Assembly (NCBI GenBank): GCA_033807695.1
Contig: CM066311.1
Coordinates: 2,542,001-2,606,000 of the forward strand
DNA from: Daedaleopsis sinensis
Taxonomy: Eukaryota > Basidiomycota > Agaricomycetes > Polyporales > Polyporaceae
Length of the DNA: 64,000 nucleotides
Reading direction: 5' to 3'
Shown here: in pieces, positions 7,543-57,893 of the stretch
Layout of the letters: each line of letters begins with the position of its first letter
Numbering within the stretch: position 1 is the first letter of the stretch
Position numbers and translations under genes: made by a program
Notes under the pieces: generated by a model
What the model was told of the DNA's origin: nothing
What the model saw: the letters and a program-made list of their open reading frames with translations, nothing else
The model's database searches: none

Positions 7543-7562
7543 ATGAAATGTTGACTCCCTAG

Positions 7563-10709: not shown

Positions 10710-10712
10710 AAA

Positions 10713-13609: not shown

Positions 13610-16600
13610 CTAAAGCTTAGTATACAGTAGAATGCTCATCTTATACTTACCGGCCTCCTGCAATTTTTTCCCTGACCAGTTGACAATATTACCGTAGTAC
13701 AGAACCTTCCCATCATTTTCTGCACCATCGTGGTACCAGACATCTCCTGACTTGTCAATAAACCTGCAGACAAAGTGAGAAGGAGTAAAGTAGATTATAC
13801 CACACAGCCGGTACATCTGGTCAATATCAGGCCATACAATCTGAGACTCTACTGTTATTTTCTGCTGTGCACGAATAGCTATAATGTTAGGTGAGTCGGT
13901 ATAAGATAATGACCTGTGCATTTGACGCTTGCATTGTGGGCATTTCTTCTCAGATTTCTGGGAGAGCAAAGCACTGATCCATTGTGTGACTGTTTTCCCT
14001 TGATATCTACCGGATGTGGCTGGACTATTTTTCCACACATAGTCATCACAAATCCATACTGCTTCAGCTTTGCTATTAGCAGGGCCATCATGGTCACATG
14101 CTCGGCATTTGTAGCACTGCTGTAGAATAGGGATGTCAATCTTGATAATGTTCTCTAATAAGAGATATATATCAGTAGGCTCGCTCCCCCGAGGTCCTAG
14201 GTCAGGATGTGACACAGCCAATCTATTTCTCAATGTATCCCGTGCTCTCTGCAAAGTCATTGACTTGTTGTCCGGAAGAGTACCATCAAACAATACACCT
14301 AAGTCCGTGAGAATTTGACTTTGCTCTGGCATGTGATGTATCCATGCCTCACGGCAGTCAGTATACAGGGTGAGCAACACAGTAAGCAGACTATCATATG
14401 CACAACTGTGGTTGACAGAATCCCATGGAAAGCCTGCAAACATCTTGCCTGCTGGAGGTTTGGTTACTTTGATTCTCTTAGCTGGCTGAGGCTTTGTGGT
14501 CTGTTCAATCTCAGTCTCCTCATCCCGCTTACGCTTAGTAGCATTAGTTCTTGTAACATTGCTGACAGTCTGTAATGCTTGTGACCCCTGTGCGGATACA
14601 AATGCAGTCCTATCCCTTTTGACTTGCGGCTTTTCAACTTTCTCCTTGGTGCCGCTGTCAGCCTTGTCGGCCTTGCTGGATGACTGGTCTTTGGAAATTT
14701 TCACCAAAGTCCAGGGAGTATCTTCGGTCACCTTTTGAATTGGGAAAGGATCACTAGCAGTCCACTTCAGAGCACTGTGGATAGTCTTGGGTACAAATTT
14801 TTCACCTTTCCATTGGCGGAAAGAATGAATAAGTTCATTTCTTGTAATTCCCGATACTTCGGGTGATATAGTACCAAGGTACCGCATTTTTGTGATTTCA
14901 TCCAGCAACTCTAGCTCTCTAAACTCTTGCCTCAATGAGCCTGCAATACCTCCTGTCAATTTCCCGCTGTCAAATGACTGGACAATGATAGTTCCCTCAA
15001 GAGTTGAACCCCGTGACAAGCAAGTGTATACAGACTGGTGTGTTTGACAATTCTGCAGGTCACACACATTACTGGGCCTTGTACGTCCCTGTGAAGCAAA
15101 GTCTGTCATAGCAAAGTTGGGTACTACCGGTACTTGGTCACGGTTTATTTCTAGTAGCATTCCATTGGGGAGTTTGCACTTCACTTTCTTGTTTACATGC
15201 GAAAGTGGGACAACATTCTCTGGAAGACCAGGGAGTTTTATCGGAGTGGGAGCAGCTGTGAGCTTGACAAAAAGTGTCTCTAATGCAAATTTATCCTCAG
15301 TGATAGGCCGTGATGTCCATCCTACTACTATTCCTTCCGCACCATTGGTAACTGAGCACTCCGTAGCTTCATTGACTTTGATCATCACCGGCAGTCCAAT
15401 GCATATACTCAACTGCCCGGGGTGATGCTCAGTAAGTTCATGGGATAAATCCCATAGCCGGGTCTGCAATTCTTCATTGACAATATTGGTAGAACGATGC
15501 GGGTTGACCTTCTTCTTGCGCTGATGTTTAGGCAGGTTCTTGTCATCGGACTCCGATGCTAGTTTGTCAACAGAGTAGAATGTATGCAACGCCTGGTTAT
15601 TCTCCCTAGCAAATCGCTTTGACCCCAGTCTATTGATAGCATCTCTGTAGGAATTATATGTGGTAATTACCGATACATTTCTGAACCTAGGCTGATTAAT
15701 TTTGGGATGCTTCTTGCCTTTACCAGCCACCCGTGATTGGATTAGCTTAATATCAGCCTCAGTACATGCTCTATATCTCAGATTCTCTAGTGCAGTTCTC
15801 AACTTTGCATCCTCGGGTTTTTGTGACCGCTGCCGCATATTTTCCCTAAGGATAACTACTGTAGTAAACTGGTGCCAAAGTGCCTTACCAATAGAGGACT
15901 TCTGCTTCTTGTGATCATGTGTTTTGTGAATAACTCTTCCGACTTCATGCGAGTATAGTGGCTTTGCTTGGACTGCTGGTGGTAATTGAGCAAAATCTCC
16001 AGCACAAATAATATTTATACCACCAAATGGAGTTCCATCATTCTTGAGAGCAGCACACATTTTCGCACAAATGTTGTACATACTGAAGCAGTCCAGCATA
16101 CTGATCTCATCGATGAATATATACTCCACATTCATAAGTCGACTTCGCACTTGCATCACATTAGCCACTGACTCGGTTGAATCAGCTTTGCTAAACCCTA
16201 GCATCGAATGATAAGTAGATCCACCTATCAGGGAGGCAGCTGAACCGGTTGGGGCCAGACACATGAACCTATAGGATTCATTTCTCTCTCCAAAGAAGTG
16301 GGTCAATGCTTTGATTACTTGTGATTTTCCAGTACCAGCCATCCCTCCAAGGTACATTTTGAGATGTTCTCCACAAGAGTCTATAGCATGATTGGCTACA
16401 ATTCTAAATGCTCGCTCTTGAGCCTCATTCAAACTGAACTTGACTACCGTATTCTCAATAAGTTCCTTGGCCTGAGGGTCGGTAGCTTGGAAATTCTTGT
16501 CCATGAAGTATTGTTTATCAACCAGTTTGACGGAGTCAATCTCATGATTTACAGGCAGTGCATTTGTAATATTCTTTGGAGGTTTGCTCTTAGCTTCTGC

Positions 16601-19600
16601 ATCTCGGGCGTCTAATATCTTCTGTCGAGCTTCAGTGAGTACTTGACGCCATTCTGATGCTGACTTGTCCTCAGGTACGGTCAATCTCTTTGGAATATTC
16701 GACAGATTGACCAACTTATCCTTATCCTGCTGCATTTTATCCATCCATCCCGCTTCCATCATTATATTCTCTGCTTTACCACTGCGTGCTAATCGGATTA
16801 TCTCTGACCGGCTGATATCTTTCCACTCCTTACTGTTTACTATATCATCTTCTCTATCTTGTACCGAAGAAGTAGTATCAAATGTATAGTGTTGGACTTC
16901 CATCTCATCCAAGTCATCACGGCTCATGTGGTACGAGCCAGACCCTTTCTCTAACTGTTTCCGCATAGCTGAGAAATCATCACGGGCATCATTGCACTCG
17001 TATCTAATGTGGAAAAACCTCATAATTTCCTCCTGCCTGTCTGTGAACTGATGAGCTCTGAATGCCTCATCCCATAGCATCTCAGCACTGTGTCGTAAGT
17101 CTGATCCTGATCTCCATGGCTTGAATAGTGTAAGCATTGTCATACAATATTCCTCTCTGCTGCCCTGATCTTTCCGTGGCAGTGGTCCTCCCACAAAGTT
17201 GGGCACAAATGAATCCTCTTCATTCTGCAAGCATACTTCATGACTACGGCACTGCGGGTGCTCAGCATGGAAAATAAAGTATGAAGGGGTCTTGGACTTT
17301 GGAGTTATCTCAGAGATATAATCTTTCTCAAGCGCCTTAGCTGTGGTCGCAGTGGCTGTGGTAAGTAATAGTTCATCTTCAGATTCCTCTACCTCTGCTG
17401 GAAGGGTCCGTGTGCTTCGCACAGGCTTGGGAGAAGATGACAGCAGCAGCTCATCCTCAGAATCTTCCTCTTCTTCTTGAGCTAAGGAAGGTCTGCCACC
17501 ACCGCGTAAACTTGGATGTCTGCTAGTACTCTTCGAAGTGGATTCATAACCGCTATCATCATCCTCATCTACATGTGCATGCACTGGTGACTCATCAATG
17601 GTATAGTTGTTCTCAAACTCATCATCACTATCATTTACCATTAACTTTTGAGGGACAGCAAACTTCCTACGCCGCTTTGGAATTGGTCTCTTATGATATT
17701 TTCTTACCCAATCATATATGCACACATTCTCATGCTCCAGCGGTCTATACATATAATCTAATACAGGAGAAATAGGCACAATACGAGTCTTTCCTTGACC
17801 TGCTTGTTCGTGATCCAAACCTAAAACTACAGTAGTCTTCCCATCCTCTACAATATTTTTAGAATCATCCCATGCTCGCATTACCTCATAAACATAACCC
17901 CTCCAGAAGCAAGTTCTAAACTGGTGTCCCGTGTAGTGATCAGGGTGTTTTAGCAGGTACATAGCTGCCATAGGCCCTCCTATCTCTGATGCAGCAGTCA
18001 ATGCATTAACCATCTTAGTCATGATGCTACGTGCTTTACTCTTATCAGCCTTGATATTTCCAACTATCTCTGGGTTGCGGTCAAATACATTTTGAATGGA
18101 TTGAAACATAACATGAGTTTTCAGTGGAGTCTTCGTAATGTAGTCAGCAACATATGCAATGACAGATTTGATGGCTGTTCCAGACATCAAACTGGTCACA
18201 TCATGGTTGCACCGGAGAAGGTATGACACTGCAGGTGTGAATGTATTCAGCCATGCCTCGCCTTTTTTCAGTATTAATGCACCGGTCTCAGGGTCAACCT
18301 GAGTAGTAGGAAAGGTGTCTCGAGGAAATCTTGCTTTGCACACCTTTGTGATAGGGTCTGTGCAGCCTCGATTATCCACCTCATTCATGCCACTATTTTT
18401 GGCTCCCTGAGGTACCTTGGAACCTTTGCTCCGTGACACGCAGCGATGTACATTAGACAAGTATAGAATCTCGTTGACTTCTTTGCAGTAGTTGCTCCAC
18501 CAATTCTTATACTCAATACATTGGGTGCAATCGGGCTGCTCTTCTTCATGAGAACACTTATCTGGAGGTGGTTGTGGTAAAGTCTCAGTAGGAGGGATGC
18601 GGAATGGATTTTTCTCATTAATCTCCTTTAGTTCAGCTGCAACTGTCTCCATATCACTGTCTAGGAACTCTCCTTTGTGAGCACTCTCAAGATACTCTAC
18701 CATGGCTTTCTGGAAGTCTGAGCCAGGATCCATAATCTTATCTCTTACTTCCTGTGGCGTCAAAGAGTTTTTAATCCATAGTAGCATATGAAGATGCAGT
18801 GTGAGTCGACCCTGTTGTTCCACAGTACCGTAATATCCTGAAGTCTCTCCGTACAGTCCAGGACGGTCCAAACCCACACCTAGAACATGCTTTACAAATA
18901 AGTCAACCATTGCCTTAAAGAATCTCGCCCCTGCAACAGGATTATTTGCAATGAGATTCATACGTTCATCTTTATCACGGAATTTGGGGACAAATGTTTC
19001 ATTGGTGTCTGCAAAGTAGAGAGCTAGTGGGTGCTTGACATCAGCTGGTGCAAATGTGATAAACCATGATGGCGCTCCAAGGTATGACACTAAGGACCAT
19101 ATCTCATTTCTCATGTACTTTTTACTCGTAATAGATCCTTGAACTTTGTAGTTTACGTGGTCAAGATCATTAAGTATCTTGAAGCAAGCTTTCTCTTCGT
19201 CTGTTTCGGGCTTGACTGGACCATTCTTCAAGCGCTCCACAATCTCTGTCAGTGTCTGATGGCTTAGATTTGCGATACGGTCAGCAATCTCATTGAACTT
19301 GCTTTTGTCAGCTAGTAAGTAGCCTGCGGTAGTCGCTTTCTTAATCTGCTCATGATTTAGTGCGACTAGAGGGAATAAAGGCTCTAATTGGAACCGTTTA
19401 TCATGATACATCAGCAACTGCTGCTTCCGCTTTTCCTCTGAAACAGTTTTATAACCCATTACATTACGAAGCCCTCCAAGTCCATAGGGGAAAAGCCAAG
19501 GAAACATTTGAGGATATAGTTGGGGATTGTCATAAATACTCTCTGGCTGCTCAGCTTGACCGATACCAAGCACTTTGCCACCTGACTTGAAGTACTCCAC

Positions 19601-21637
19601 TGCACGAGCAGTAATCTCATGAGGACGGCTATGTCCAAGTCTTTCAAGATTACTACCAGTTAGACCATGCACAATGAATAGACAGTCACCCTTGTCAGTA
19701 CCGTCATCCTCTTCCGTGTCATTTACCGCTGTGGACTTGGGGTCTTTGTTAGACTTCATACTCTGTGTATAATTGACAATCACAGGTGGTTCATCTTCAG
19801 GGTATTCTTCAAGATTTCATAAAAAATATCTAGATCGGTATAGTCAGAGTGATTTAATTTCAGCCACTCTAATGCACGCGCAACTTTGTTACGGCGTACC
19901 AACATAGGAGTGCGTCTAAACTCCTTCAGTGTTGGAACATTAGGTCCTATATATAAGAATGCCAATACTTGATCTAACTCATCTCTCGGTGGCGGCAATG
20001 CATTATAAATCTTGGGCATTGGCAGGGAGTGACTAACTACATTTGCCTTCATCTTGGACATTCCCGACACATGGACCTTTACTATGCACAAGTTATGCTT
20101 CACCCGTGAAATGATCATTTTCTCGGTCCAACTGAGATCTTTCAACTCATCAGGAATCTCTCCAATCCATAGCCCATTTGCAAGAGCATCAATCGGTTTT
20201 TTTCCATCTTTTAGTGACTCAGAACACGAAGGACAAATATCATTACAGCCTGATAGAAGAACTGGCCCTGGTATAGGGCGGATAGCCTCATCAATAGATT
20301 GTCTCTCTACTCTGGTGACAGGTTCATCGGAGCATAACAACTCTCGGTCAAATGATATTGACTCTATATTGCATAGGCTGGCTTTCGGTGTCAATAAGCC
20401 ACACACGGCACATGCAGACTCAAGAAAGTTTGATACCTGTAATCCATTTGCAAATCCAGTAATTGTCTCATGTAGCAAAGCTGTTCCAATAGGAACAGGC
20501 GGGAAGGATGACTTAGATTGTGTAGTAGAAATACTTGATCTACGTGACGAAACAGCCACACGCTCTCTCTGACACTGCTTTCTTTGCTGGGTTGTTTTTG
20601 GTTTGTCAATTGGAGAGAATACAGCAAGGAACTGCGGACAACCATTACATTGATGCTCAATTAATGTTCGCAAAATACGATCTCTTGACATTCGACTATT
20701 GACTCCTGTAATATTGTGACATATGGCAATGTTGAGCATCTGCGGTTTAGTCAACCTATAACTGATAATAGACAAGGGAAGCTTAACAGCAACATCATCA
20801 TGTATATCGCCCTGCATAGTTGACAGAATGTACTGCGAGTAAATATATGACTTGGCATCTTGACATATACCCCGGGTTAGATACGGTCTCAACTCAGTAT
20901 CCAGCCACACTTTTGCTTGATTCTTAGTCTTTGGTAATTGAGCTCCACCATATAACTTATCATTAGGTTCATCTAAGATGATATCAACCATCCGTGAATT
21001 ACGGTATTGAACTGAAGTCCGTGATGACTCTAGACCACGTATCTTTACAAGATAATCATGGGAGAAATAAAGATTCTGGATACACTGGAGAAAAGCCAGT
21101 TGGACAATAATTCTAATGTTTTCTGTCATGGTCAAAAGGCTGGTACTCAAGTCCACATATACTGGGTACGTCACAGGTTGAATAGTAATCGGGTGTATGC
21201 GAGATGAGCTTGTTGTGAGGGTGCTCTCTAAAACCCTGCCCGTGTCGGGCACAGAACTTGTCATGAGGGTGTCTGTCATAACCCTGCCCATGATGGGCAC
21301 AGAACTTGTCACAAGGGTGTCTGTCATAACCCTGCCCATGATGGGCACAGAACTTGTAACGAAGGTGTCTGTCATAACCTTGTCCATCGTGGACCGTGTA
21401 TTGGCATTAGATGCACAGGGCAATGGCAAGAGGGGTGCTAGAGTATCACATATAGTTCCTAGATATATTGTAAGCGGTTCTGTTCACTGACAAGTACTCA
21501 AGAAGAGACGTACCTCTTATCTGAACACTGCTACTTGTATTGGTGACAGTGATAGGTATCATGTTGGCAGCGTGTAGCATAGATGTGCTCCATCCATATA
21601 GGAGGAGAATAGATGACCATGTTAAGATATCGGGCAT
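13610..21637 (-). pseudogene. Helitron Rep-helicase, left copy, one-base frameshift
   Basis: Start ATG 21637 gives a hydrophobic leader (ILTWSSILLLYGWSTSMLHA); an intron (GTACGT donor near 21532, acceptor ATCTAG near 21471) joins it to the long frame. Order: leader; 16-residue repeats; Cys-rich region (CAVCGLL, CNDICPSC) like the DUF6570 region of fungal Helitrons; Helitron-like Rep with HUH motif HLHML (about 18785-18805) and twin-Tyr YVADYITK (about 18132-18158); PIF1 helicase with Walker A GMAGTGKS (about 16321-16350), Walker B FIDEISMLD and GDFAQLPP; and a C-terminal NHSCAYDS ... SHFVCRFID segment like a cysteine protease. Near 19800-19830 one base is missing relative to the right copy, so the frame breaks into 549 and 2057 codons. 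It would act as a rolling-circle replication initiator and helicase in the nucleus. If the frameshift is real this copy is inactive. Confidence 0.9.
21240..21400 (-). repeat. 48-bp coding tandem repeat in the Helitron leader
   Basis: About 3.3 copies encode VMTDTLVTSSVPIMGR-type 16-residue units. The right Helitron has a degenerate equivalent (RLTSTAPLAGRVLGGTLLTS) at the same place. Confidence 0.8.
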
Positions 21638-21736
21638 TTTGTCAGGGAGTGCAGCAAGGTAGGGCTAACAGATTGAGGGAGAGAGGTTGAAAGATGTGAT
21701 CGATGTCAGCGTCTACAAAGTTGAACATCCAGTCAC

Positions 21737-22024
21737 GTGGCTGGGAACATTATCCCATCAGATGCACGTGATCATATCAAGTTCGTTTTCCCTAAGTCCA
21801 CACTCTTAGTTGCCCAAGTTGATCATGCAGAGAAGTTTGTCAACGTTGCTGTTATCATTATAGGAAAGTCACCATACAAACTACACGACGTTGAGCTACT
21901 CAGAATGCAGGGAAATACCATAGATGCGACCTGTCAAAGATGCTACAGAACATGGGTGCTCTGCGATGAAGAGTGGGACTTGAAGCAAGAGTTGCCGTGC
22001 AACAACGGAGCAAGGTGGAAGTAA
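21737..22024 (+). CDS. possible small ORF, unknown
   Basis: Open frame of 95 codons in the gap between the left Helitron start and the end of gene D, on the opposite strand to both. It contains a hydrophobic stretch (VNVAVIIIGK) and CQRCYRTWVLC. It has no ATG at its 5' end (GTG only), no equivalent in the right copy and no visible splice signals. It may be chance or a relic. Confidence 0.2.
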   Translation: MAGNIIPSDARDHIKFVFPKSTLLVAQVDHAEKFVNVAVIIIGKSPYKLHDVELLRMQGNTIDATCQRCYRTWVLCDEEWDLKQELPCNNGARWK

Positions 22025-22072
22025 AGGAGGGGGGGAGGGGTGGGATACCAGTGATAATGTAGTAAAGACTCT

Positions 22073-25000
22073 TCAGACGCCAGAAGCAATAGAGACAGCA
22101 CCGTAGAGGTTCAGGCTGAGACCATGGACAGCGTCAGGGTGGATGTTCTTGGAAGCAGGGAAAGTGGAGGCGCTATAGTAGATTATAGCGACTTCCCCAA
22201 ACTCCAACTCCCGCTTGAGACGGGGCAGGGATGCAACCGTGTCATGAGAGAACTTAATACTCGGGTTACGACCCTGCTTGAAGAGGTGTCTAGCATCCCA
22301 CAAGGAGACTAAAAGATGGAGTCAGTGTCTCTAATAACACCTGATACAAAAGAACGACTCACTGTCATCAGTGATCTGCCACGTCGTCTTGTCCCTCATC
22401 TCGATGAGAGACCGTCCAGGCATCGAGGCAGGGGTGCGACCCTTCTTCGGTGTGGCCGCACCCATCCCAGGAAGAAGCCGAGCTAGTGAAGTAGAATATT
22501 AGATGTATACATCAATGGTGAACAAATGACATACCATTGCCAGACATTGTTCCGGCGCTGCTTGGGAAGGTACGAAACGACAAGCCGTTGATCCGGCCGT
22601 TGCCATCGACCATCTGGACACCAAAGGTAGGCACTCCCAAGCACTCGCTCCCAAATATGCCAGCCATCCAGGCCAAACTGCGCTCATACTCCCCACGAAG
22701 AGGACTCAGCAGGATCTGCTTTGCCTTCTTCTGAGCAAACGGAGCAGGAGTGATGACGTTACAGCCCAGCACCACCCCAACGGACCACAAGATGGCACGG
22801 TGAGGGCCAATAGGGGAGGGGATCGAGATGACTGGATACGATGAGCCAGTGGTGGAGTACACATGAGCTGTGGCAAGACCGGGAGGTGCACGAGCAGGGT
22901 TTAACACCCCAGGGTGGCCTATCGGGCCCCCGTGGCTGTGAAGAACAAGCTCCAATAGAGCGCTAGGTAAGCAGTTAGACGATATGTTAAAAGCTCATCA
23001 GGAGGTATATAGACTTACTCCTTGTCCACGGAGTAGCCGGGCTGATCGATAATCCCCTCTGACAGCAGAATTGTCGTCAGCGGGTACGGTCCCGAGTCAG
23101 GATAATGATCCCTGTCACAACGGATTAGCAACAGATATATAAAGAACAACAACATCATGCTTACTTCAAGGACGGGAGGAAAGGATACGTGTCTTTTAAT
23201 AAGACATCGGTAGCATCGTCATCCTGCAAGTCAACACCAGGACCATAGCCGACAGCATGCATAGTTGGAATACGTCCAGTGGAGTCAGTCAAAGAGACCA
23301 GAGGATCTAATCTGACATTAGCAGTGCACAGGATGTGGGAGAAATCATAGCACATACAGGTGTCCATGGTATCCTCCTCAGCATCGTCATTGTCCATCTC
23401 CATGTCCCACATAGGAGAACTAGGCCTGGTGATCGGCTCTTCGACCGGAGAAGTGTCGGGAATGTCAACAGTTTCCCTGTGACAATCGTCAATATATAAC
23501 TAGAACGGGTACGGACTTCTCACTTACTTGGAGATGCGGACACGGCGAGGAGAGCGGGGGTCATTCTTGACCTGAACGTCACCCCTGAAGATATTGTACA
23601 GAGTGTTAGAGTCATAAGCTGGAAACAGTAACACAATACATACTTAGCAACCGAGATCTTCTCCAGCTTGATGTCGTCGAGCCTATAGCACACATGTCAA
23701 AGAAGGGTGACACACGTCTATATTAAAGGGGACATACACTTGATGCAACTGGTCAAAGTTCTCCGTGGAAGACATGTCCTTACGGAAAAGAGCGGTCTGG
23801 GTATGGTAACTGGAGAGAGTGTGAGGATAGGATTAAGGGTTGAAGTATAAATGAGCTAGTACGTTTCAGAATCAACCTCTGTGGGGTTGAAGACTTCCTC
23901 GGCGGAGCTAGGGACAGATGTTAATGTAGTAGCGAGAGTGGAGCAGCATAGACGACGTACTCAGGGACCTTGCCACGACGGCGTGCCGCAGGGGTAACCT
24001 TTCGGTCAGCAGCCTTGCCAGCAGCCTTCGGGGTGGCGGTCTTAGCTCTGGCCTTCGTAGCAGCCTTTGCACTTGGGGTCGCCTTGGCAGGAGCCTTAAG
24101 AGCAGCAGGCAAAACAGGCTCGGCAGGGGCCTGAGTACGGGCACTGTTGCGACGAGGCAGAGGGGGCACGGCCTTCTTGGGAGGGGGAACAGGTGCTTCA
24201 ACAACATCCCAGTCTTCATCGGTGTTCTCCTTGGCCACTTTTACTTGCCTATGATCAACGACATTTAGCACAATGAACAAAGCAGACTAGAGAGTGAGGA
24301 CATACCGGGTGGAGGTGCGAGTCTTCTTCACAGGACTTTCCCTGATGGACAAAACGGTAAGCATAAAGTACTGAGTGATAAGGCAGTAGACACGTACTCT
24401 TCCTGATCATCAGAGTCCTCCTCCTTGGCCCGCTTCCCTGGGGTACGACGGAAAACAGTGTTCGTAGTACCCTTTCGGCGAGAGGGAGTGGTAGCTCCTG
24501 CTTTCACAGGAGTAGGTGCTCCGCTGCTTTTGCTACAGTATAGTCATTGTTAGCACATGCAAGGATAGGAGCATGAGTAGACTGAGGACGTACACGGGCG
24601 AGGGACTACCGGGGCTAATAGCATCAGCGTCATCAGCCTTACGGCCACGCCTGGAAGGTTTGGTGAGGAATATGCAGATAAATGATGGATGATTGGTACA
24701 TACCGAGTAGCCCTTGGAGTCCTCTCAACATCAGGACGGGTATCAGGCTCATCCTTCTCAGAGGCGAGGACCGTATCAGAAGACTGGTCATTTTGAGTGG
24801 TCGCCGAGTCACCATCATCGACGGAGAGCTCTTCGTCGCTGAAGAGAGCTATAACGATGGAGAATGGAAGAGTATAATATGATGCGCACCTTTCAATGTT
24901 GTGTGAAGACATCAACTCTGAATTCTCCCGGTCGTTTGCATCCATCACATCTTCATCTAACTCCTCTTCATTGTTGTCAACCTCCTCTGCCTCAGAGTCA

Positions 25001-45896: not shown

Positions 45897-46687
45897 TGTA
45901 ACAGGTCAGAGAAGGAACTTGGCGGCAGAGCGAGAGGGTGATGAAGATGGGCTGGGGGAGGGAGCTAAGTCCTTCCCCTGTCTCCTCAGTATATGTGATG
46001 GGATGCATGCCTCGGATGCGGGCGCCGTCGCCGGGCTGCATCTGCATCGCTCAGGTCAGCATTGCCGTTCGGACACCGTTTCATGCCAAACATGCTGACG
46101 GTCTACGCAGTTACACGGCCGCTTGGCTCTAAACTTGTGCCAGAACAGACAGGCAGGCGCATGCCCCGGTCAGTTACCCGACTCGCTTATTTGGGAAGAC
46201 GGGTTGCTCTGTCCAGGCTTGCAGCGTACTCTTTAAGCTCTCTTCTTCTCCACATTTCCTTCTCCCCTTTAACTTAATCTGTACAGGCTTATACATACTA
46301 GAGCACCTGAGATAAATTGAAGAACTTGCGCTGCAGCATATTCGTGAAGAGGCTTGCAGGTCATTGCTGTGCATTCCATCAGCTCATATCGGGTAGCAGA
46401 GTCTCTAGCGGGCCGCGCCCTCGCATATTTTGAGGTCTGCACTAGCGGGTTGCCTATGTGCACGCACTCCTGGCACCGCAGGTGGCTGAAGGTGTTCTGG
46501 GTCTTGGTTTTGGGCTATATAAGCCCTGCCTGACCCGCTGTTGCCTTAGAGTCCATCGTTCTTGAACTCTACCTACACAGTCTTCCGCCTCCTTGCTCTC
46601 CGTGCTCTCTCCTCATCCCATTTCCCTCATCACTCTCATCTCGCCTCATTTCCCTTCTTGTTGCTTACTGCACTCTTTGCCTCTATC
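45897..46687. promoter_or_regulatory. divergent promoter region between C and D, right copy
   Basis: About 790 bp between start codons. On the D side a TATATAA-like element (GGCTATATAAGCCC near 46513-46526) is followed by a CT-rich stretch (46580-46680), a good fungal core promoter. On the C side the minus strand is CT-rich close to the start. Confidence 0.6.
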
Positions 46688-49589
46688 ATGTCTTCTCGTG
46701 CTGCTCGTACTCGCACTCCCTCTGGCCGGGCTGCTGCCGCCAAGCCGACCCCCGTCAAGGGTACACCCACCAAGGCTGCCGCTGTCAAGACCACGACAGC
46801 AAAGGCTGCTGCGACCAAGGCTGCAGCCAAGCCTGCTACCAAGACTTCCAAGGCTGCTCCAAAGCCTACTCCTACGTGCGTATTCATTATTCATGTCTAA
46901 GTAACCTCAACCTTACAAATGTTCCATAGGGCGAAGCCCAAGGCTCGAGGACGCTCCGTGGTCAAGAAGCCCATCACGTACGTGTCTCCTCTTTGTAGAT
47001 CTCCACTCTCGCTGACTTACATCCACCGCAGTCCTGAGATTGTTGAAGATGAGGCTGAGGAGGTTGACGAGGAGGAGGCAGCCAAGGAGGAGGAGGACCA
47101 TGGGGAGGAAGATAACACTGAGGAGAGGTCGGGTGTGGACATTACTTCGTAAGTGCATTCTAAAATTGGTGTTTATCCATGCACCAACATCTTTCAGCGA
47201 TGACGATGTCAGCTATGTCTCTGTTGCCAGCAACGAAGATGACGAGGACTACCAGGAGGAAATCCAGGCCGTCGAGCAGGCCATTAAGAAAGTCACTACT
47301 GGCCGCAAGCTGGTCGCTCGCAAGGCCTCCACTCCGGAGAGTCCTAAGATCCGGTAAGTGAATATCTCCACACCCTCAGCCCTCCCCTGATGTCTGTCTC
47401 TAGTCGCTCTCTCAAGAAGGGTGAGGTGCCAGTTAGTCAAGAGAGCCCCTCCCCCAAGTACGTTCACATATACCTGACTTGTCTGTGTACTGACCGGTCT
47501 ACAGGAAGCCCAAGAATACCCTCACGAGGAAGCCCACTTTTGCTGTGGCGCCAGCCAGCACTCCTAGCAGGAAGCGCACCAAGGAGTAAGTCTACAGCGG
47601 CCTCCACTCTAACATTGTACTAACCTCTACTCGTAGATCCTACTCAGATGAGGACTCTGAAGAGGAGTGAGTCTTATGACTTACAGTGCTCATTTACTTT
47701 ATACTGACAACTCGATCTGTAGGGCTTCACCTGCCAAGAAGGTCAGAGAGGAGTAAGTGTCATGCCCCTTATAGCGCCACTTATCTGACATTCAGATCAG
47801 AACTCCTGTTTCCAACGAGGACGAGGATGTTGAGATGGTCGAGTACGTGTCTACAGATTCCCCATGCTACCCATTCTATGCTGACCCAGATGGTTATGTA
47901 GGGCCACCCCCAAACGCAACCGCCGAGGTGTCGAGATGGTTGACAAGAAGGTTCAGACCGCACCTCCTCTTCCCCGCGGTAACTCTGCTGCCAAGGCTGC
48001 TGTTCGGGGCACTCCAAGGAAGGTCAAGGACACTAAGGCTCCTAAGTGAGACTACAAAACACGTCCATCATCTTCTGCTTCTAACTGCGGGCAATAGCTC
48101 TGCAGATGCATTTTTCAATCCCTCTGACATTGACCGCTCCTCCGACACGTAATGCTCCCCTTACTTTACATCGTTTTCTCTTCTCATATTCTTAGATATC
48201 GCCGGCAGTCGAAGTTGTTTACCGATGCTTTGGATGAGTCTGCTAAGGGCGATGTTGCCCATGTTACGGAAGCGTATGTGTCACTTTTAATACATGTTGC
48301 ACGTTCTCTATCTCAACCGAGTGCTTTCTCCAGGATGCAGGACGTCCACATTGAAGAGAATATGAACGAGGGTATCCTTGACTTTGAGACTCCTGGGGCG
48401 ATGTGCGATCTCTTGCGGGAGTCGTACAAGTCTCTTCCGGTATTGCAGTAAGTATTTGGATCTTAAGTTAAGCTTTAGAGGTCGTCTAATATTTCCCGTA
48501 GGCCCTGCGCAATAGATACTGGCAGCAGCATTATGAGTTCTGCACTTCTTTACGACCACATCATCGATGGTCCCTATGATGTACACCCTCAGTGAGTCTC
48601 TACATTGTGAAGCTGTGGAAATTGCTCATTCTTATGTACTCGTAGGGCGCTAGAAGACCTGGTGAAGTTCAGTCACGACGGCAAGGCGGACGACCCGTTT
48701 GTCATCAACGCTGCTCGTGCCGATCCTACTCTTGCCAAAGCGTACCAGTACAACAACTCACGGGCCTTCTGCTTAGCTGCCAACGTCAACAGCCCTACTC
48801 CTCCCCGCCTGATCTGTGCCACCATGGTCGTGTGCCTTGGTTGTCACATGATTGAACCCGCTCAGATGTCCACCGCCCCTGTGCGTACAATCAAGGAGTT
48901 CTTGGGGGTCCCGCTGCGGGGGGAACTGGAGCGTTCTATTGCATTCTACGGCACTATCTTTGGCCGAGAGGTACTTGGAGTTCAGAACTTTGGGGCTGGA
49001 ATTGGAGAGCACCGTCAAATTGGTTTAGTTTTCCGCACATACCCCGATACCCCTGGCATGAAGCCCAACCCCGGTATGTTTGCGATGTTCGCTTTGGAGT
49101 ACTTATGCTGACAACGGTTCATGAAGGACGGTCTCTTGGTGGAATGGGGGCCAGCCCGGCCATGCTCCGCAAGGCTCAGACCCCCAAGCGAACTGCAGCA
49201 GGCCCAGCACACTCTCTACTTGACATGCGGGACAAGACCAGCTGGAGCTCCACTGAGAACTGTGCGTTGCTGCTGTGCTTATATTGTCTTCAGAGTCTAA
49301 CCAATGCCCAGTCGCTATCTGGGATGCTCGAGAGTACTTTACTCTTGACAAGGACGAAGGGCTGCAGTACTTGCACGAAAATGTGGCCTCTCTTCCTCGT
49401 CTTCAGCAGGATCTGGAGTTTGGTGACCTCGCCATTGTCTATCACAGCGTCAGTACCTTTGACTTTGTCCGTCAGGGCGGGGGGTCATCCAGTGACAAGC
49501 CTCCTGCTCACAACGAGGCTGACACGGTGCTGTCGATGAACTTGTATGGCGCTGCTTTGGTGTCCAAGTACGGTAGCAAGAGCGTGTAG
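46688..49589 (+). CDS. cassette protein D, right copy (H1-like tail plus globular C-terminus)
   Basis: Start ATG 46688 (MSSRAARTRTPSGRAAAAKP), 15 or more very short exons, stop 49587-49589. N-terminal region is Ala/Lys/Pro/Thr-rich (KAAAVKTTTAKAAATKAAAK) like histone H1, then acidic segments (EDEAEEVDEEEAAKEEED). Mid region: YRRQSKLFTDALDESAKGD, MNEGILDFETPGAM. Globular C-terminus: RLICATMVVCLGCHMIEPAQ, VPLRGELERSIAFYGTIFGR, LGVQNFGAGIG, LLDMRDKTSW, IWDAREYF..VASLPRLQQDLEFGDLAIVYH..VLSMNLYGAA. All these blocks align with the left copy. A nuclear chromatin-associated role is suggested by composition only. The Helitron start follows 418 bp downstream on the same strand. Confidence 0.75.
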
Positions 49590-50007
49590 ATTTTTTCCAC
49601 TTTCTATGTCTCCTTCCGGTCATGTTCATCCCATCTCCGCCATCTTCAATGGCAGACGTCTACTCTGGTATTTTGCTCCCTCCTGCTCTTATCGCCTTTG
49701 CTCCCTATCATACGTTTCCGGTGCAGTATTTTGGTAGTGTTGTGTTGACAGTGTATGGACTTCCTAATAGTCTCCCACATGTAATCTGTTCGCAGTTTAC
49801 TTATACCAGAGATTTGGAAGCATCGCATTTGGTCTGCTTCAACAGGACTGCTTCTTAAACTGGAGTCTGGGAAAGACGCGCATCCTTTATCAAGAAAACA
49901 CGGTCACATGACTTTTCATGCAAGCGAGCATGTTGAAGTTGAAGTTGCCCCCTAGCATTTCTGTCTCTTCAACAACCTCTATCCTGCACGTCATCAGACC
50001 GACCAAC

Positions 50008-53000
50008 ATGTCTCAATACTCAAAGATGACCTCGTTATCATGGCTACAGAAGGCTGTCTTTATGCTCTGCATAATCGCAGCAGTTATATCTCATGCTCGA
50101 GCACTTTGCACATCTCTTTCCTGGCCGATCAAAACTTACAACTTAGAAGTCTACTGTGACGTTCAAGGAGGTAAGTGCAAGTAGTAAACTGCAAATGAAT
50201 AGCCCTCTCTAACTTTCCCCTCTAGCTCTATCCTCTACCCCTATAGAACACCATTGTACCGCTGTGCGGCCGATCTACAATACCTATTATTATGAGTTGC
50301 CAGCCAGCACTCCGGGTTTTGCAGACACCCGCTTGACAAGTACTGCGCCCCTTGCGGGCAGGGTTTTGGGAGGCACCCTCTTGACAAGCACTCCCATTGA
50401 TTATTATATCCCTGTCTATGGGAACAGAGACATGGTAGAAACATATTATGACTTGAGCAAGTCTTACTACAGCTCATTGAGCCAGCTCAGTACTTATCAA
50501 ACACGGTCTACACAGAGGATTATATCTCAAACACGATGGTGAGATTCTACGACTAAAGATCATCTATAATCATTCTCGTAGCTTGCATACCCATGGGATG
50601 CCAAACTACTGCCGTCTGTCTGCTGCGAAGGAGACTCTGACATGCTATGGAGGTGAACGTCCTGCTGCTCGTAGGAACAACGGTGGTAAAGGCACTACCA
50701 GATCATGGTCGATGGCGGAATTGTCTGAGTATCCTGCACTTGGAGACTTACAACCAAATGCCCAGTTCCGTTTCTTATCGTATAATCTAAAGGACACATT
50801 TACCGGAAACAACACCGCTGTTGGGATTGATTTACCTCTCCGGGTATTAGTGCCCCGATTGACCAAACCTGCCCTGCTGGATGTTGCATTAAAGCATAAT
50901 ATATCTGACATTAGCATGCATCACTCAAAAGAGATCATCTTAGAGAAAATCAAAGACCATGAGTGTTCGGTATGCCCAAAATATATTGCGGTCTTTGGAT
51001 TGATCGGACCGGTGAAGACGTCTCGGGAGCGGGTTCAAGCACATAGACAGCGTATTGCAAAGCAATGCGACAACATGAACTTTCCACGAAAACCCTTAAC
51101 AAAAGAACTGGAGGAAAATATAGTCAAAGGGTATGCCGAGGACATAACAATTGATAACTTTCTAGAGTCTGCATGTTGTGTCTGTGGTTTACTTACGCCT
51201 TGTTCAGAACTGCAGAATGTACATGATTCAAATATTGATCTGCGTCCCCTGGTCCCTGATGGGCCGGTAACCCGCAAAGAACGGCATTCCAGCGATGATG
51301 CAATTGTTGAGATACCCGGGCCCGTACTATTGCCTAACTGCAATGACTTGTGTCAAAACTGTACAAAGGATCTGCGCCAAGGGAAGATACCAATTGATAG
51401 CCTTGCGAACGGTTTATGGATGGGAGAGATTCCTTCTCAATTAAAAGGCCTCAGTTGGACGGAAAAGATGCTTATCTCCAGAGTCAAGCATAATATATGT
51501 ATAGTCAAAGTTCATGTCTCCGGAATGTCGAAAATGAAAGCCAATGTGGTCAGTCACTCTTTACCTATGCCAAAAATATATAGCGTGCTACCCCCTGCCC
51601 GTGAAGACTTGGATGAAGTGCTGGCATTTATGTATATTGGGCCCAATGTACCTACTCATAAAGAGTTCAAACATACGCCCATGCTTGTACGTAGGAATAA
51701 GGTGAAAGACGCACTTGAATGGTTGAAATTGAACCATTCAGACTACGCAGATTTAGCTATCTCTTACTCAAACTTGGACCAATACTCCGAGGAGGAACCT
51801 CCGGTCATCGTTAACTACACCCAAAGTATGGAGTCAAACAGAGATCCTGAGGCTACCGCAGTCAATGATACTGAAGAAGACGATGGGATAGAGGAAGGCG
51901 ACTGCCCATTTGTAGTCCACGGACTTACTGGAGCTAACTTAAACTCTCTTGCCGACTCACGCCCTTATGAGATCACAGCGCGGGCAGTCGAGCATTTCAA
52001 GTCTAATGGGAAAGCATTAGGGATAGGACAGGCCAAGCAGCCGGAGAGCATATACGATAATCCGCAGTTATATCCACAAATGTTTCCCTGGTTATTCCCT
52101 TACGGTCTTGGAGGACTCAACAACATGTGCAGTCATGGGACCAAGGTTGTATCTGAGGAGCGACGTAAACAACAGCTGCTCATGTATCATGACAAACATT
52201 TCCAACTAGAGCCACTGTTCCCTCTTGTAGCCCTGAATCATGAACAAATCAAGAAGTCTACAACGGGAGGTTATATCTTGGTAGACCGGCATAAATTCCA
52301 GGATATTGCGAGTCGGATACTTAGTATTAACTTACCTACGCTGCGTGATCTTGTGGAGAGAATGAAGTCGGGACCGGTGAAAGCTGAGACAGAGGCAGAG
52401 AAGGAGTGCTTTAAAGTGCTAAACGACCTGGATCATGTCAATCATCGTGTGCAAGGTTCAATTACTAGCAAAAAGTATATGCGGAATGAAATATGGTCCA
52501 TGGTCTCATACTTAGGAGCACCATCTTGGTTTATCACATTCGCTCCTGCTGATGTGAAACACCCCCTTGCATTATATATGGCAGATACCAATCAGACATA
52601 TGTACCCAAGTTTAGGGCTCAAGATGAGCGAATGCGCCTCATTGCTAGTAATCCTGTGGCCGGAGCTCGATTCTTCAATGTAATGGTGCAGTTATTTCTA
52701 AAACATGTCTTAGGTGAAGGCCTTGACAGGCCGGGCCTGTATGGCGATACTGCTGGATATTATGGAACTGTGGAGCAGCAGGGACGGCTAACTCTACACC
52801 TACATATGCTAGTATGGATCAAAAACAGTCTAACTCCTCAAGAAATTCGTGAACGCATTATGGATCCTGAGTCCACATTCCAAAAGGAGATGGTTGAGTA
52901 CTTGGAGAGCGTACACAAGGGGGAATTCTTACAAGGTGATATGGAATCGGTAGGTGAAAGACTTGAGAATGCCAAGGTGAAGAATCCATTCTGTGTACCT

Positions 53001-56000
53001 GCCACAGAAAGATTACCCCAAGTACCCCCTGTACAATGTACTCATGTTTGCAGAGCAGATTGCAATGGCTGTACCGCATATCATAAGTGGAGGTCAGAGT
53101 ATGAGGATGAGATTGATGAAATCCTATATACGTCTAATGTTCACAAGTGTACTACAAGAAACCGGAAAGATTATATATCCAAAGGTGCTCAGAATGGATT
53201 GCAAGAAGTGGATAATCGCGGTTGCACAGACCCTGTAACTAAAGTCTGTAAAGCACGGTTCCCTCGAGACACTTTTACTGAAACTGCAGTAGATCCTGAG
53301 TCGGGAGCCCTTATTATGAAGAAGGGAGAGCCTTGGCTGAATACATTTACCCCATCAGCCGCATATCTACTGAGATGTAATCACGATGTGACAAGTTTAC
53401 TATCAGGAACTGCCATCAAGTCAGTTATTGCTTATGTAGCTGACTATATTACTAAAACACCATTGAAAACCCCTGTCATGTTCCAATCTATCCAAAAGGT
53501 TTTTGAGAGAAATGTGGAGTTAATTGGTGGTGACCGAAGTTCCAAAGACAAAGCACGTTTGCTGGTCACTAAGATGGTTAATGCATTGACAGCGGCATCG
53601 GAGATAGGCGGACCTATGGCTGCTATGTATCTACTCAAACATCCAGACCATTATACTGCTCACAAGTTTTGGGCATGCTTTTGGAGAGGATACATGCTGG
53701 AGATTATGCAAGCATGGGAAGATTCAAAGGATGTATCGCAGGAGGGTAGATCCACAGTGGTCGTAGATTGTGAAAAGAGTAATACCGAAGGCCCAAAGCG
53801 TATTGTGGCGTTATCGCCGGTCAATGACTATATGAATAGACCTATTGAGTTTGAACACTTAAATGTATACGACTGGGTCCGTCGGTATCACAAGAGACCT
53901 GTTCCCAAGCGGCGCCGCAAGACCATCTTCTTACAGCAAGATCTAAATAATGCCTATGAATCTGATGAATTTGAAGACAACTATCATGTGGACGAGGGAA
54001 TTCCAAGAAATACAGCAACGGGCAATGGTAATCAACTAGAAGAAGAGGAACCTGACATTGCTGGAAATAGCGAGGATGACATTTCAGATAATGAAGAGAC
54101 AATGTGCTATGGCGGAGGGAAACTAATGCTCGCTGTACCAGATGATGACTCTGACGATGAGTTATTGCTTACATCCAAGACTAATGCCAAGCTTGAACGT
54201 GAAGTCCGCATCGCCATGGATAATCAAACCAAGGCCAATACGCCCTCGTACTTTAACTTCTCAGCCAAACATCCACAGGCAAGAACACATGAGGTATGCC
54301 TGCTTGACGAGAAGGAGTCATTTGTACCCAACTTTATTGGTGGAGCAATACCTAGAAAAGATGCCGGAAGTAGAGAGGAGTATTGCATGACAATGTTGAC
54401 TCTATTTAAGCCTTGGAGGTCTGGTAGAGACCTGCGACCGAACTCTGAGACTTCATGGAGTAATGTTTTCGAAAGTCATATATTCACCAAACGAGAAAAA
54501 GAGGTTATGAAATTCTTTCACATTAGATATGAGTGCAATGATGCAAGAGATGACTTCTCCGCCCAACGTAAACAAGCAGAGAAAGGAGGCACCAACCCGA
54601 TGTATATGAGCAATGGTGACATGGATGAGATAGACACTCAAGCTATTGTGTTTGATGCGGCCAATAGGGAGGATGATATAGTGAACGCAGAAGATTGGGA
54701 TCAAGACAGCACAGCAGAGATTTTGAGAAAATCCCGCATGGCTACAGCTGAGAATGTAATGAAGATGTCAGGATGGATGGACCGCATAGATGGTGCTTCG
54801 GATGAGCAAAAATCTAGGCTGCCTAGCAGATTGAGGCCAGATAAGCCTGCTACGGACTGGAAAACACTGTTGGACAATTTGAGAAAAGATATCCTAGATG
54901 CAAGAGCTGCTGAAGCGAGTAAGAAGAAAGACAACCCTGGGGACCAGTTACCTGAGAACGATGTGGTAAATCAAGTAAAATTGGTGGACAAGCAGTACTT
55001 TTTGTCTAAAGAGTTTGAGGGCCGGGACCCGCAAGCTAAGGAACTGATTGACCGTACGGTGGCTTCATTCAGTTTGAACAAGGAGCAAGAAAGAGCATTT
55101 CGTATTGTTGCGAACCATGCTGTACAATCTTGTGGTGAACACTTGAAGATGTACTTGGGGGGAATGGCAGGGACGGGTAAATCCCAAGTGATCAAAGCTC
55201 TATCCCATTTCTTTGCAGAGAGACAGGAGAGCTACCGGTTTATGTGTCTAGCACCAACTGGGTCAGCAGCAGCATTGATTGGTGGATCGACCTATCACTC
55301 CATGCTGGGGTTCCGATCTAAAGACTCTACCGAGTCCATTTCATCCATTCAACAAGTTAGAGATTGACTAAGATTAGTGCAATACATATTTGTGGATGAG
55401 GTTAGCATGGTAGACTGTGGCAGTCTATATAATATATGTGCCAAAATGTGTGCTGCAATACAAAATGATGGTGCACCCTTTGGAGGGATCAATATGATCT
55501 TTGCTGGTGATTTTGCTCAACTTCCTCCGGCCATGTGTGGGAAAGCGTTATATGCTCATGACGTAGGGCGTGTAATCCATCGAACACATGATCATAACAA
55601 GCAAAAGGCATCTATTGGAAAAGCATTATGGCATCAGTTTACTACCGTAGTCATCCTTAGACAGAACATGAGACAGTGTTCTCAAACTCCTGAAGATGCC
55701 AAGTTGCGGACGGCATTAGAAAATCTTAGGTACCGGGCATGTACCAAGGATGATATTCAACTACTGAAGTCTAGAGTGGCTGGGAGAGGTCCAAACAGTC
55801 CCAAGTTAAATCAACCCAAGTTCCGCAATGTTTCCGTCATTACTTCGTGGAACTCTTATAGAGATAAGATTAATGAACTTGGATGTAAGAGATTTGCAAG
55901 GGAGAATAGAACAGCTTTGAAGTCATTCTACTCAATTGACAAACTTACTTCAGAGACTGACCCATCAGAGCTCACCAAAAAGGTTCGTGCCAAGCGGGTA

Positions 56001-57893
56001 AATCCTAAGAGGAAGAATAACATTGTAAATGAGAAACTTCAGGAGACCTTATGGGGACTGTCTCATCATCTGACAGAGCATCATCCTGGCATACTTGAGC
56101 TTTGCGTTGGGATGCCTGTTATGATCAAAGTCAACGAAGCTACAGAATGTTGCGTTACTAATGGTGCAGAAGCAGTAGTGGTGGGATGGACTACCAGACC
56201 TATCCCAAACACTGAGGATAAGTTTGGATTGGACACCCTATTTGTCAAGTTGACCGCTGCACCTACAACCGTCAAAGTAGATGGACTGCCTGAGAATGTG
56301 GTTCCTTTGACCCACTCTAAGCGCAAAGTCAAATGCAAAATGCCGAATGGACGTATTCTTGAGATTGAGAGAGACCAGGTCCCGGTTGTACCCAATTTTG
56401 CAATGACTGACTTTGCTTCACAAGGACGTACAAGGCCATTCAATGTGTGTGATCTACAAAACTGCAGATCCCACCAGTCGGTCTATACTTGTCTCTCTCG
56501 GGGCTCAATGCTTGATGGAACTATTATTGTTCAAGCATTTGACTCAAACAAACTGACTGGGGGAATAGCAGGTAGTCTTAGGCAAGAGTTCCGAGAGTTA
56601 GAGCTACTTGATGAGATCACCAAGCTACGATACTTGGGTAGAATTCCCCCACGTGTGGTCGGTATAACTCGCAATGAACTTATCCATTCATTCAGGCGTT
56701 GGAAGGGAGAAAAGTTTGTGCCTAAGAATATGCATAGTGCCATTCAGTGGAGTAACAAGGATCCATTCCCATTGAACCCAGTAACAGAGGATAGCCCATG
56801 GACTTTAATTAAACAATCCAAGGCAGATGCAGATGCAAGCAAGAAAGCGGCCGTGAAACGTGATACAACAAACTTTGTCAGCGCAAAAGGAACTCAAGCA
56901 TTAAATAATGTCAGCAATGCAGCAACCAAGCAGACTGCCAAACGTAAACGTTCTATGGAAGAGGATGAGATAGACAATACTTCAAAGAAAAAAGTTAGAC
57001 AAGTCAAAGCTGTACCGCCACCTAAGGGCAAAACCTTTAGAGGAATCCCTTGGGACAAGGACAATTGGAGTTGTGCGTATGATAGCATGTTGACTATACT
57101 CTTATCAGTATACACAGAGTGTCCTGATGCTTGGAAGGCAGAGGCATCACCACAAAGCGATGTACTTCTCAAGCTAGAGCAGGTGTTCCAACAATCTCTA
57201 GCCACACCGGCGACAATGACCATCATTCAGGCTAGAAATCAAATCAGAGATATGCTGGGTTGTGAGAATCCTGAGTTGGCTGCACGAGGGAAGGCTTATA
57301 CTGATCTCTATGAGCTAGCTGAGAGACTACTAGCAGTAGATAAAGACATTCTAACTAAAACAAACATTTGCCGCCGCTGTGATTCTAAGTCTAGTGAGAG
57401 CTATTCATCACAAGTAATGTGGACATGTACCGAGAACACATGGAAGAATAATCCAGAGAAGTTGGGTACATATAGAGGGAAGACAACATCAAAATGGATA
57501 CATGCATTGAGAACCCAGCAGAGAGAAACTCCTTGCCCACAATGCCGTTATCCCATGCTGCGATACAGGGAGTACAATGCTCGACCTCCTTTTATCTCAT
57601 TCATCATTGATGGGCACAAGATGCGCTTGGACTATCAGATTGTTTTCCCTGAAGTAGACCAGATGTATAGACTCTGTGGGATAGTATACATCTCCACTGG
57701 AGAGCTCACAAAACACTTTGTGTGTAAAATAATTGACAAATCGGGAGGAGTATGGTTTCACGATGGTGCTCTTCCGGGTAATATGGGTGAGAATGTTACA
57801 TACAGTGATAACATCATTCACCTACCTTATCAAAAGCTACAAGCTATCAAGAAGGAGTATGTGATGACTCTGGCGATCTATACTAGATTGTAA
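50008..57893 (+). pseudogene. Helitron Rep-helicase, right copy, single nonsense codon
   Basis: Exons 50008-50170, 50226-50538, 50582-57893, about 2595 codons. The leader MSQYSKMTSLSWLQKAVFML.. is strongly signal-peptide-like (hydrophobic to about residue 26). Next: degenerate TSTP repeats; Cys-rich N-region (CCVCGLLTPCSE, CNDLCQNC); Rep with HLHML (about 52792-52812) and YVADYITK (about 53425-53455); PIF1 helicase Walker A GMAGTGKS (about 55161-55185), Walker B FVDEVSMVD (about 55383-55415), GDFAQLPP; and C-terminal NWSCAYDS with HFVCKIIDKSGG. The only lesion seen is an in-frame TGA at 55365-55367, between Walker A and B, where the left copy has Arg (CGA to TGA transition). The frame reopens at once. 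By eye this gene is far closer to its left counterpart than AB, C or D are to theirs. Confidence 0.9.

What the first reader, a model, noticed from the sequence alone, without database searches (positions are those of the whole stretch)
13610..57893. A TET-like oxygenase / C / D / Helitron cassette present twice in opposite orientation
Seen: AB, C, D and a giant Helitron gene recur with the same order, relative strand and spacing (AB-C convergent; C-D divergent with about 720/790 bp; D-Helitron 435/418 bp), and AB shares its early splice positions, though AB, C and D proteins are well diverged. Known: mushroom TET/JBP genes are expanded together with DNA transposons (described for KDZ elements). 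Inference: the four genes form one co-inherited unit, possibly a composite Helitron carrying a DNA-demethylation and chromatin toolkit, which I have not seen described in this form.
Basis: partly seen in the sequence, partly recalled or inferred. Interest (0 to 1): 0.92.

Follow-up and report, generated by a model that had tools for sequence, protein, structure and literature searches.

The report
Giant Helitron carrying DNA-modifying genes
The twice-seen gene set is the fixed cargo of a 24-27 kb jumping-gene (Helitron) family, present about 17 times in this fungal genome, whose cargo includes a fused enzyme that looks able to oxidise DNA bases and then act on the oxidised base in the way some bacterial viruses do.

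The parts
1883..57995 (+). Copy 2 of the element, whole span; contains copy 1 and a 5.26-kb insertion
   Evidence: 5' end by pattern; both ends and body against the C3 relative, pieces 95-99% identical
13497..37950 (-). Copy 1 of the element, nested in copy 2; 24.45 kb
   Evidence: Aligns to the C7 copy from end to end of the element in pieces (91.5% at the 5' side, 92.4% at the 3' side, AB region diverged); uninterrupted empty site in the C3 relative, 116 bp at 99.1%, no gap
1883..1912 (+). Copy 2 5' terminus TTACGATTGATGAGTATACGAAGAAATCGT
57952..57995 (+). Copy 2 3' terminus: inverted repeat CTCATCAATCGTA, GCCA...TGGC stem, end CAAG
37921..37950 (-). Copy 1 5' terminus
13497..13540 (-). Copy 1 3' terminus: inverted repeat, GCCA...TGGC, CCAAG end
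34924..37248 (+). Gene E, copy 1 (774-aa ORF; minus in element orientation), no known domain
   Evidence: matched in all 9 elements held; 42-100% aa in seven, 31-41% in copy 2 and the C3 relative; genome-wide
11753..12727 (-). Gene E, copy 2, first part (interrupted by 6494-11752)
4995..6493 (-). Gene E, copy 2, second part
39091..44328 (+). Gene AB, copy 2, 15 exons: dioxygenase-like domain A, basic/acidic linker, domain B (43354-44328)
   Evidence: open spliced frame; junctions of the first 8 exons read by eye, those of the last 7 printed as GT/AG; Pfam HMUDK_hel
27440..32210 (-). Gene AB, copy 1 (A exons about 32210-30200, B exon 27440-29455; limits by eye)
44582..45896 (-). Gene C, copy 2, 5 exons, 360 aa
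26104..27336 (+). Gene C, copy 1 (premature stop in exon 4; probably decayed)
46688..49589 (+). Gene D, copy 2, 17 exons, 687 aa, histone-H1-like Lys/Ala-rich N-terminal tail
22073..25382 (-). Gene D, copy 1 (end approximate)
50481..57893 (+). RepHel gene, copy 2, in-frame stop ending at 55367
13610..21483 (-). RepHel gene, copy 1 (DUF6570, Helitron_like_N, PIF1, C-terminal Cys-protease-like region); frame change near 19780-19816

Best explanation
The finding is a large Helitron2-like rolling-circle transposon family with a constant five-gene layout (E, AB, C, D, RepHel); full-length RepHel frames exist in 5 of the 9 copies read. RepHel (HUH nuclease with two tyrosines plus PIF1 helicase) nicks and peels the element and inserts it between a purine and T without target duplication. 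AB is a two-domain DNA-base enzyme. Domain A, an Fe(II)/2-oxoglutarate dioxygenase of TET/JBP-like layout, would oxidise the methyl group of a pyrimidine (5mC or T). Domain B, of the amino-acid:DNA transferase / helix-hairpin-helix glycosylase superfamily, would act on the oxidised base in the same polypeptide, most likely conjugating a small group to it as phages do to 5-hydroxymethyl-dU, so that the element's DNA is no longer read as methylated. C, D and E are accessory, D probably a DNA-coating protein. Shown: element, ends, nesting, copy number, order, mostly purifying selection, module exchange, fold similarity of B. Inferred: transposition mechanism (from the family), chemistry of A and B, and the anti-silencing purpose.
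Against: Domain A has no Pfam or PDB match, the profile comparison with this genome's own Tet_JBP proteins found nothing, and its model is unreliable. Foldseek alone gives no match to B at E<=0.001. Middling Z for helical models can be coincidental by the tool's own note. Only 3 of 10 B sequences match HMUDK_hel at E<=1, only copy 2 above the cut-off, copy 1 not at all. No kinase that would activate 5hmU was recognised (Pfam on C, D, E; Walker A looked for in E only). Five comparisons gave omega of 0.67-1.17: E of copy 2 against C3 with two queries, B of C4 against C2 with the copy 2 query, the DUF6570 part of C4-C2 and of copy 2-C3. CpG depletion means that any protection is incomplete, and other Helitron loci vary from 0.67 to 1.18. 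Nine clusters hold cassette fragments without a clade I Rep.
Confidence: 0.6

Rival explanations
1. Oxidise and excise: B is a DNA glycosylase that removes the base oxidised by A, making AB a single-chain active demethylase (TET plus TDG in one protein).
Against: Best structural match and the only Pfam match above cut-off are phage hypermodification proteins. Abasic sites in a rolling-circle element would be risky (inference).
Confidence: 0.28
2. B is a non-catalytic DNA reader that targets A to modified or element DNA; AB is simply a TET-like demethylase.
For: No activity is shown for any family member with this architecture.
Against: B keeps a dense set of polar residues (N139, C142, Y143, Q147, R150, D225, E306, H307, C310, K311) with at most one exception among the 17 sequences, gaps aside, more typical of an active site.
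Confidence: 0.17
3. Recent segmental inversion-duplication of a host gene cluster, not a transposon.
For: Two inverted copies lie in the window.
Against: Exact empty site, shared termini and 17 complete sets on 10 contigs.
Confidence: 0.01
4. Passenger genes captured by chance, without function for the element.
For: Helitrons are known to capture genes (PMC4289320, abstract and two sections read). Some comparisons show omega near 0.7-1.2.
Against: Same five genes, order and strand in 17 sets despite saturated divergence, with omega mostly below 0.45.
Confidence: 0.04

Closest known systems
TET+ Helitrons of fungi (Kojima 2025, PMC12730594; abstract, three sections, legends and passages read)
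   Same: Helitrons carrying a TET/JBP-type dioxygenase gene; Helitron2 case in Agaricus bisporus, Helitron1 in Puccinia graminis and Pezizales
   Different: There the PE-type enzymes bear HxE (here HxD); the paper states that TET+ transposons encode no further modifying protein; for Polyporales it reports TET+ Kyakuja only. No five-gene cargo or fused B domain appears in the sections read
KDZ (Kyakuja) transposons with canonical TET/JBP
   Same: Fungal DNA transposons coupled to a dioxygenase; present in this same genome
Helitron2-type elements of Fusarium (FoHeli, PMC5148889; passages read)
   Same: Asymmetric terminal inverted repeat, 3' repeat 20-40 bp inside the end, terminal hairpins in some
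   Different: About 5-11 kb; other insertion preference; no such cargo in the passages read
HELPO1/HELPO2 of Pleurotus (PMC4289320; abstract and two sections read)
   Same: Basidiomycete Helitrons, HELPO1 with extra genes, A-T insertion
   Different: 1.5-13.7 kb; cap genes differ between subfamilies and lie downstream of RepHel
Phage thymidine hypermodification enzymes (5-HMUDK, amino acid:DNA transferase, PUGT 8z2n)
   Same: Predicted fold and weak profile match of domain B
   Different: Phage enzymes act after a kinase; here the domain is fused to a dioxygenase-like domain in a eukaryotic transposon

Membership tests
Helitron superfamily | HUH Rep domain (PF14214) with two tyrosines and PIF1-type helicase in one protein | tested here: met
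Helitron superfamily | Insertion without target-site duplication, between A and T | tested here: met
   Empty site of copy 1; R|T in 9 of 9, A in 5 of 9. One T is shared, so a 1-bp duplication cannot be told from an R|T joint
Canonical Helitron1 | 5'-TC and CTRR-3' ends | tested here: not met
   Ends are TT and CAAG
Helitron2 / Helentron | Asymmetric terminal inverted repeat | tested here: met
   ACGATTGATGAG near the 5' end, CTCATCAATCGT 31-32 bp inside the 3' end
Helitron2 / Helentron | Terminal hairpins | tested here: inconclusive
   GCCA...TGGC stem by eye in 9 of 9 3' ends; energy folding shows it in copy 2 but prefers another pairing in copy 1, and shows no clear simple 5' hairpin
Helitron2 / Helentron | Phylogenetic grouping of RepHel with Helitron2 | not tested
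   No reference set available
Helentron | Insertion in a TT dinucleotide | tested here: not met
   5' neighbour is A or G in 9 of 9, if the first T belongs to the element
TET/JBP dioxygenases | HxD...H metal triad and downstream 2OG-binding Arg | tested here: met
   11 of 11 for the triad, 10 of 11 for Arg
TET/JBP dioxygenases | Match to Tet_JBP profile PF12851 | tested here: not met
   No match for the A domain; none of the genome's 22 hits lies in the cassette
TET/JBP dioxygenases | Double-stranded beta-helix fold close to CcTET/NgTET | tested here: inconclusive
   Model pLDDT under 50 in nearly all of the A region
PE-type TET (Kojima) | HxE instead of HxD | tested here: not met
   HxD in 11 of 11
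HMUDK_hel / amino acid:DNA transferase superfamily (domain B) | Profile match above curated cut-off | tested here: met
   27.4 against 25 bits for copy 2 only; 3 of 10 members at E<=1
HMUDK_hel / amino acid:DNA transferase superfamily (domain B) | Same fold | tested here: met
HMUDK_hel / amino acid:DNA transferase superfamily (domain B) | Transfer of an amino acid to 5-phosphomethyl-dU | not testable with these tools
   Needs biochemistry
KDZ transposon | KDZ transposase in the element | tested here: not met

The most novel reading that the evidence does not exclude
A eukaryotic transposon makes its own hypermodified DNA base: AB oxidises a methyl-pyrimidine and its phage-type transferase domain attaches an amino acid or similar group, giving a third class of hypermodified base in eukaryotic DNA after base J and 5gmC, used to hide the element from methylation-based silencing. 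The AB modules are traded between elements like phage cassettes.
Probability: 0.25. Interest if true: 0.95.

Novelty: new variant of a known kind. Interest (0 to 1): 0.8.

Why it matters
It links three fields. A Helitron with a fixed multi-gene cargo under mostly purifying selection is shown here with ends, empty site and 17 complete sets. It gives a concrete candidate for the step after TET-type oxidation in fungi (excision or conjugation), a gap that the literature names openly (PMC8889193). The abrupt cargo swaps between elements with almost identical RepHel look like phage-style modular evolution in a eukaryotic rolling-circle transposon. All of this is testable with one recombinant protein and a mass spectrometer.

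Tried and rejected
Segmental inversion-duplication: rejected by the empty site. KDZ as the carrier: rejected, since KDZ sits with another TET type in this genome. Filing A as TET/JBP by profile: no Pfam match at E<=10 and no PDB sequence match at E<=10 for the copy 2 A domain; hhalign of 12 A sequences against 8 local Tet_JBP exons gave probability 0.1, but both profiles are shallow. Gene E: no Pfam match for copy 1 and for element C4, one weak match below cut-off for element C9a (STPRs, E 0.024), and no homologue at E<=0.001 among the 7996 candidates scored in the protein database. Foldseek gave no significant PDB match for either model, and the whole-AB model is poor in the A region. PHROGs gave B only weak matches to families of unknown function, best 0.015. 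Profile searches of the PDB with B alignments gave nothing better than E 0.95. Cross-species co-localisation in other Agaricomycetes could not be run (no fungal collection among the tools); AB homologues in Earliella, Cerioporus and Polyporus came without context. Iyer 2013 and Iyer 2014 are not held, so an earlier mention of fungal members of the B superfamily or of such fusions cannot be excluded.
Full report
WHAT IS THERE. The window is C12:2542001-2606000 of an unnamed 51.6-Mb fungal genome in 24 contigs. Comparing the two arms by translated search shows collinear homology of AB, C, D and the Helitron gene on opposite strands. Gene models for copy 2 are open: AB has 15 exons, C has 5 exons and 360 aa, D has 17 exons and 687 aa. 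The Helitron gene carries DUF6570, Helitron_like_N (3.7e-33) and PIF1 (6.7e-24), with the HUH motif LHLHM and the two-tyrosine motif Y..DY..K in 9 of 9 elements.

ENDS AND NESTING. I fetched seven further elements and compared near-identical pairs. Similarity stops at the same points and leaves elements of 24.3-24.5 kb, 27.3 kb in the C3 relative. Nine 5' ends read TTACGATTGATGAG...AAGAAATCGT. The nine 3' ends carry CTCATCAATCGT, a GCCA/TGGC pair and a CAAG end. The base before the element is A or G in 9 of 9, and the base after it is T in 9 of 9. With these ends copy 1 is 13497-37950 (minus) and copy 2 is 1883-57995 (plus). A close relative of copy 2 on contig C3 runs straight through the point where copy 1 sits: 116 bp match at 99.1% without a gap across the junction. 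So copy 1 inserted into copy 2 between gene E and AB. The same comparison shows a 5.26-kb insertion with an 8-bp overlap at 6494-11752, which interrupts gene E of copy 2. Genome-wide, the 3' pattern of the copy 2 type occurs 11 times (reversed control 0): 8 lie 5.8 kb beyond the start of a clade I Rep domain, one 6.7 kb, one 14 kb, and one has no Rep near (by eye).

A FIFTH GENE. The 774-aa ORF 34924-37248 is inside copy 1 and is matched in all nine elements held: 42-100% identity in seven, 31-41% in copy 2 and the C3 relative. I call it E. It runs against RepHel and lies next to the 5' end. Copy 1 E has no Pfam match and no database homologue.

GENOME-WIDE CO-LOCALISATION. Exon-level searches of the whole genome with B, C, D, E, A and the Rep profile (all lower bounds by the tool's note) were clustered by position, gaps up to 13 kb. 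Of 39 clusters, 16 hold all six segments; one of these holds both window copies, giving 17 complete sets on 10 contigs, all E-, AB+, C-, D+, RepHel+. Complete means all segments present, not intact. To define the Helitron clade without reference to cargo I searched with the Rep domain of copy 1 (73 rows). A gap separates clade I (64-100% identity, 26 loci plus a short fragment at C12:2478k) from clade II (46-51%, 13 loci) and clade III (30-37%, 27 loci). In clade I, 17 of 26 loci have the complete set. Seven have part of it (C9:1522k, C10:3084k, C3:1736k, C8:2761k, C9:1667k, C3:2517k, C10:948k, the last two with D 17-19 kb away). Two (C5:1056k, C5:2394k), both with truncated Rep frames, have none. 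By eye no clade II or III locus lies inside a cassette; one clade III locus (C9:1546k) is about 10 kb from one. C shares a cluster with B in 22 of 23 places, and D lies in a cluster with Rep or other cassette genes in 23 of 25. Nine clusters hold cassette fragments without clade I Rep (C2:1684k, C4:2169k, C4:2186k, C4:2221k, C7:2193k, C7:2215k, C8:4081k, C11:1199k, C12:2492k).

AB OUTSIDE THE HELITRON. Three AB genes (C8:3393-3398k, C4:3880-3885k, C9:430-435k; C8 and C9 99.8% alike over 3339 bp) have no C, D, E or Rep. At C8 and C4 a Plavaka transposase lies about 4 kb away, and at C9 about 17 kb. So the AB fusion has probably moved between transposon types, as Kojima reports for TET genes generally. 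The canonical Tet_JBP genes of this genome are another story: 22 loci, 21 within 5 kb of a KDZ transposase by comparison, none in the Helitron cassette.

SELECTION AND MODULE EXCHANGE. Nei-Gojobori estimates on single-exon parts, where dS is not zero or saturated, show mostly purifying selection: B 0.16-0.39, C 0.04-0.44, D 0.08-0.22, E 0.11-0.25, RepHel 0.06-0.38. Exceptions: E between copy 2 and C3 0.69 and 1.17 (two queries), the DUF6570 part of C4-C2 0.67 and of copy 2-C3 0.77, and B of C4-C2 0.86 when the copy 2 exon is the query (0.32 with the copy 1 exon). Divergence is strikingly uneven along the element. Copy 1 against C7a: RepHel dS 0.076, E 0.064, D 0.13, C 0.24, but B 1.17. C9a against C9b: C and D zero, RepHel 0.046 (954 codons), but E 1.08 and B 0.63 (0.38 over 302 codons with the other query). 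Copy 1 against C4: RepHel dS 0.027, DUF6570 part 0.59, D 0.64, while B, C and E are saturated. Window-wise identity shows the same with sharp steps, for example 69-83% to 96-100% at about 17-18 kb between copy 1 and C4. The search tables agree: among the 11 elements whose Rep is at least 96% identical to copy 1, E is 97-100% identical in 5 and 43-45% in 6. Unequal selection cannot do this to synonymous sites; exchange of modules between elements can. AB is involved in each of the five mosaic pairs compared. Nine of the 17 complete elements were available for DNA comparison.

MECHANISM. I think the order is: A oxidises a methyl-pyrimidine and B acts on the product, more likely by conjugation (0.45) than by excision (0.28). 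In phages the hydroxymethyl group is phosphorylated by a kinase first (PMC6449724, passages); no activating kinase was recognised in the element, which is the main gap of the conjugation reading; the host or C, D or E might supply it. The purpose would be escape from methylation-based silencing, in line with Kojima's argument. The elements' CpG depletion (0.72-0.81 in the 8 elements held uninterrupted, against 0.90-1.22 in 10 flanks) suggests that they have been methylated. Helitron loci of other clades vary (0.67-1.18 in L001-L008), so this is a hint only.

NOVELTY. TET-bearing Helitrons are known since December 2025 (PMC12730594: abstract, sections 18, 23, 26, figure legends and passages read). 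That paper says that such transposons encode no additional modifying protein, and for Polyporales lists Kyakuja only. In the held library, listings of searches for JBP with Helitron, for JBP, thymine, glycosylase, basidiomycete and transposon, for hypermodified, JBP, fungi, transposon and thymine and for the phage enzyme names showed no paper announcing the fused enzyme or the five-gene Helitron. Two likely sources (Iyer 2013, Iyer 2014) are not held. Base J is called the first and 5gmC another hypermodified base in eukaryotic DNA in PMC11065753 (passages).

LIMITS. 

Noticed in passing
window 6494-11752: 5.26-kb insertion in gene E of copy 2, flanked by an 8-bp overlap in the comparison with C3; no terminal inverted repeats seen; contains long tandem-repeat ORFs and a 300-bp direct repeat (6490-6789 and 10713-11012 identical).
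   Followed up: partly
window 3002-4351 (+): 449-aa ORF between the 5' end and E, matched only in copy 2 and the C3 relative among elements held (97% identical), no Pfam family: a sixth, subfamily-specific gene candidate.
   Followed up: partly
window 57998-59413 (+): ORF directly behind the copy 2 3' end that by eye reads like a DDE-type transposase into which copy 2 may have jumped; no Pfam hit above cut-off.
   Followed up: partly
RepHel C-terminus, window 13613-14512 (-) and 56799-57893 (+): Conserved SCAYDS Cys box and later His region that by eye resemble a ubiquitin-specific cysteine protease; no Pfam match above cut-off.
   Followed up: partly
G000 C8:3393-3403k, C4:3875-3885k, C9:412-435k: AB genes near Plavaka transposases without C, D, E: the same fusion in a second transposon type.
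   Followed up: partly
G000 C4:3428151, C4:3463792, C4:3542804, C6:4349669, C8:2805536, C12:2522807: Six further 5' ends of a third subtype (TTTACG) that are not at complete elements; possible non-autonomous derivatives.
   Followed up: no
window 40467-40686 (+): Copy 2 A domain has Cys where the other 10 sequences compared have the predicted 2OG-binding Arg, so this copy may be inactive.
   Followed up: yes
L021:4248-6554 (-): Weak STPR (DNA-binding peptide repeat) match in gene E of element C9a, E 0.024, below cut-off; a hint that E binds DNA.
   Followed up: no
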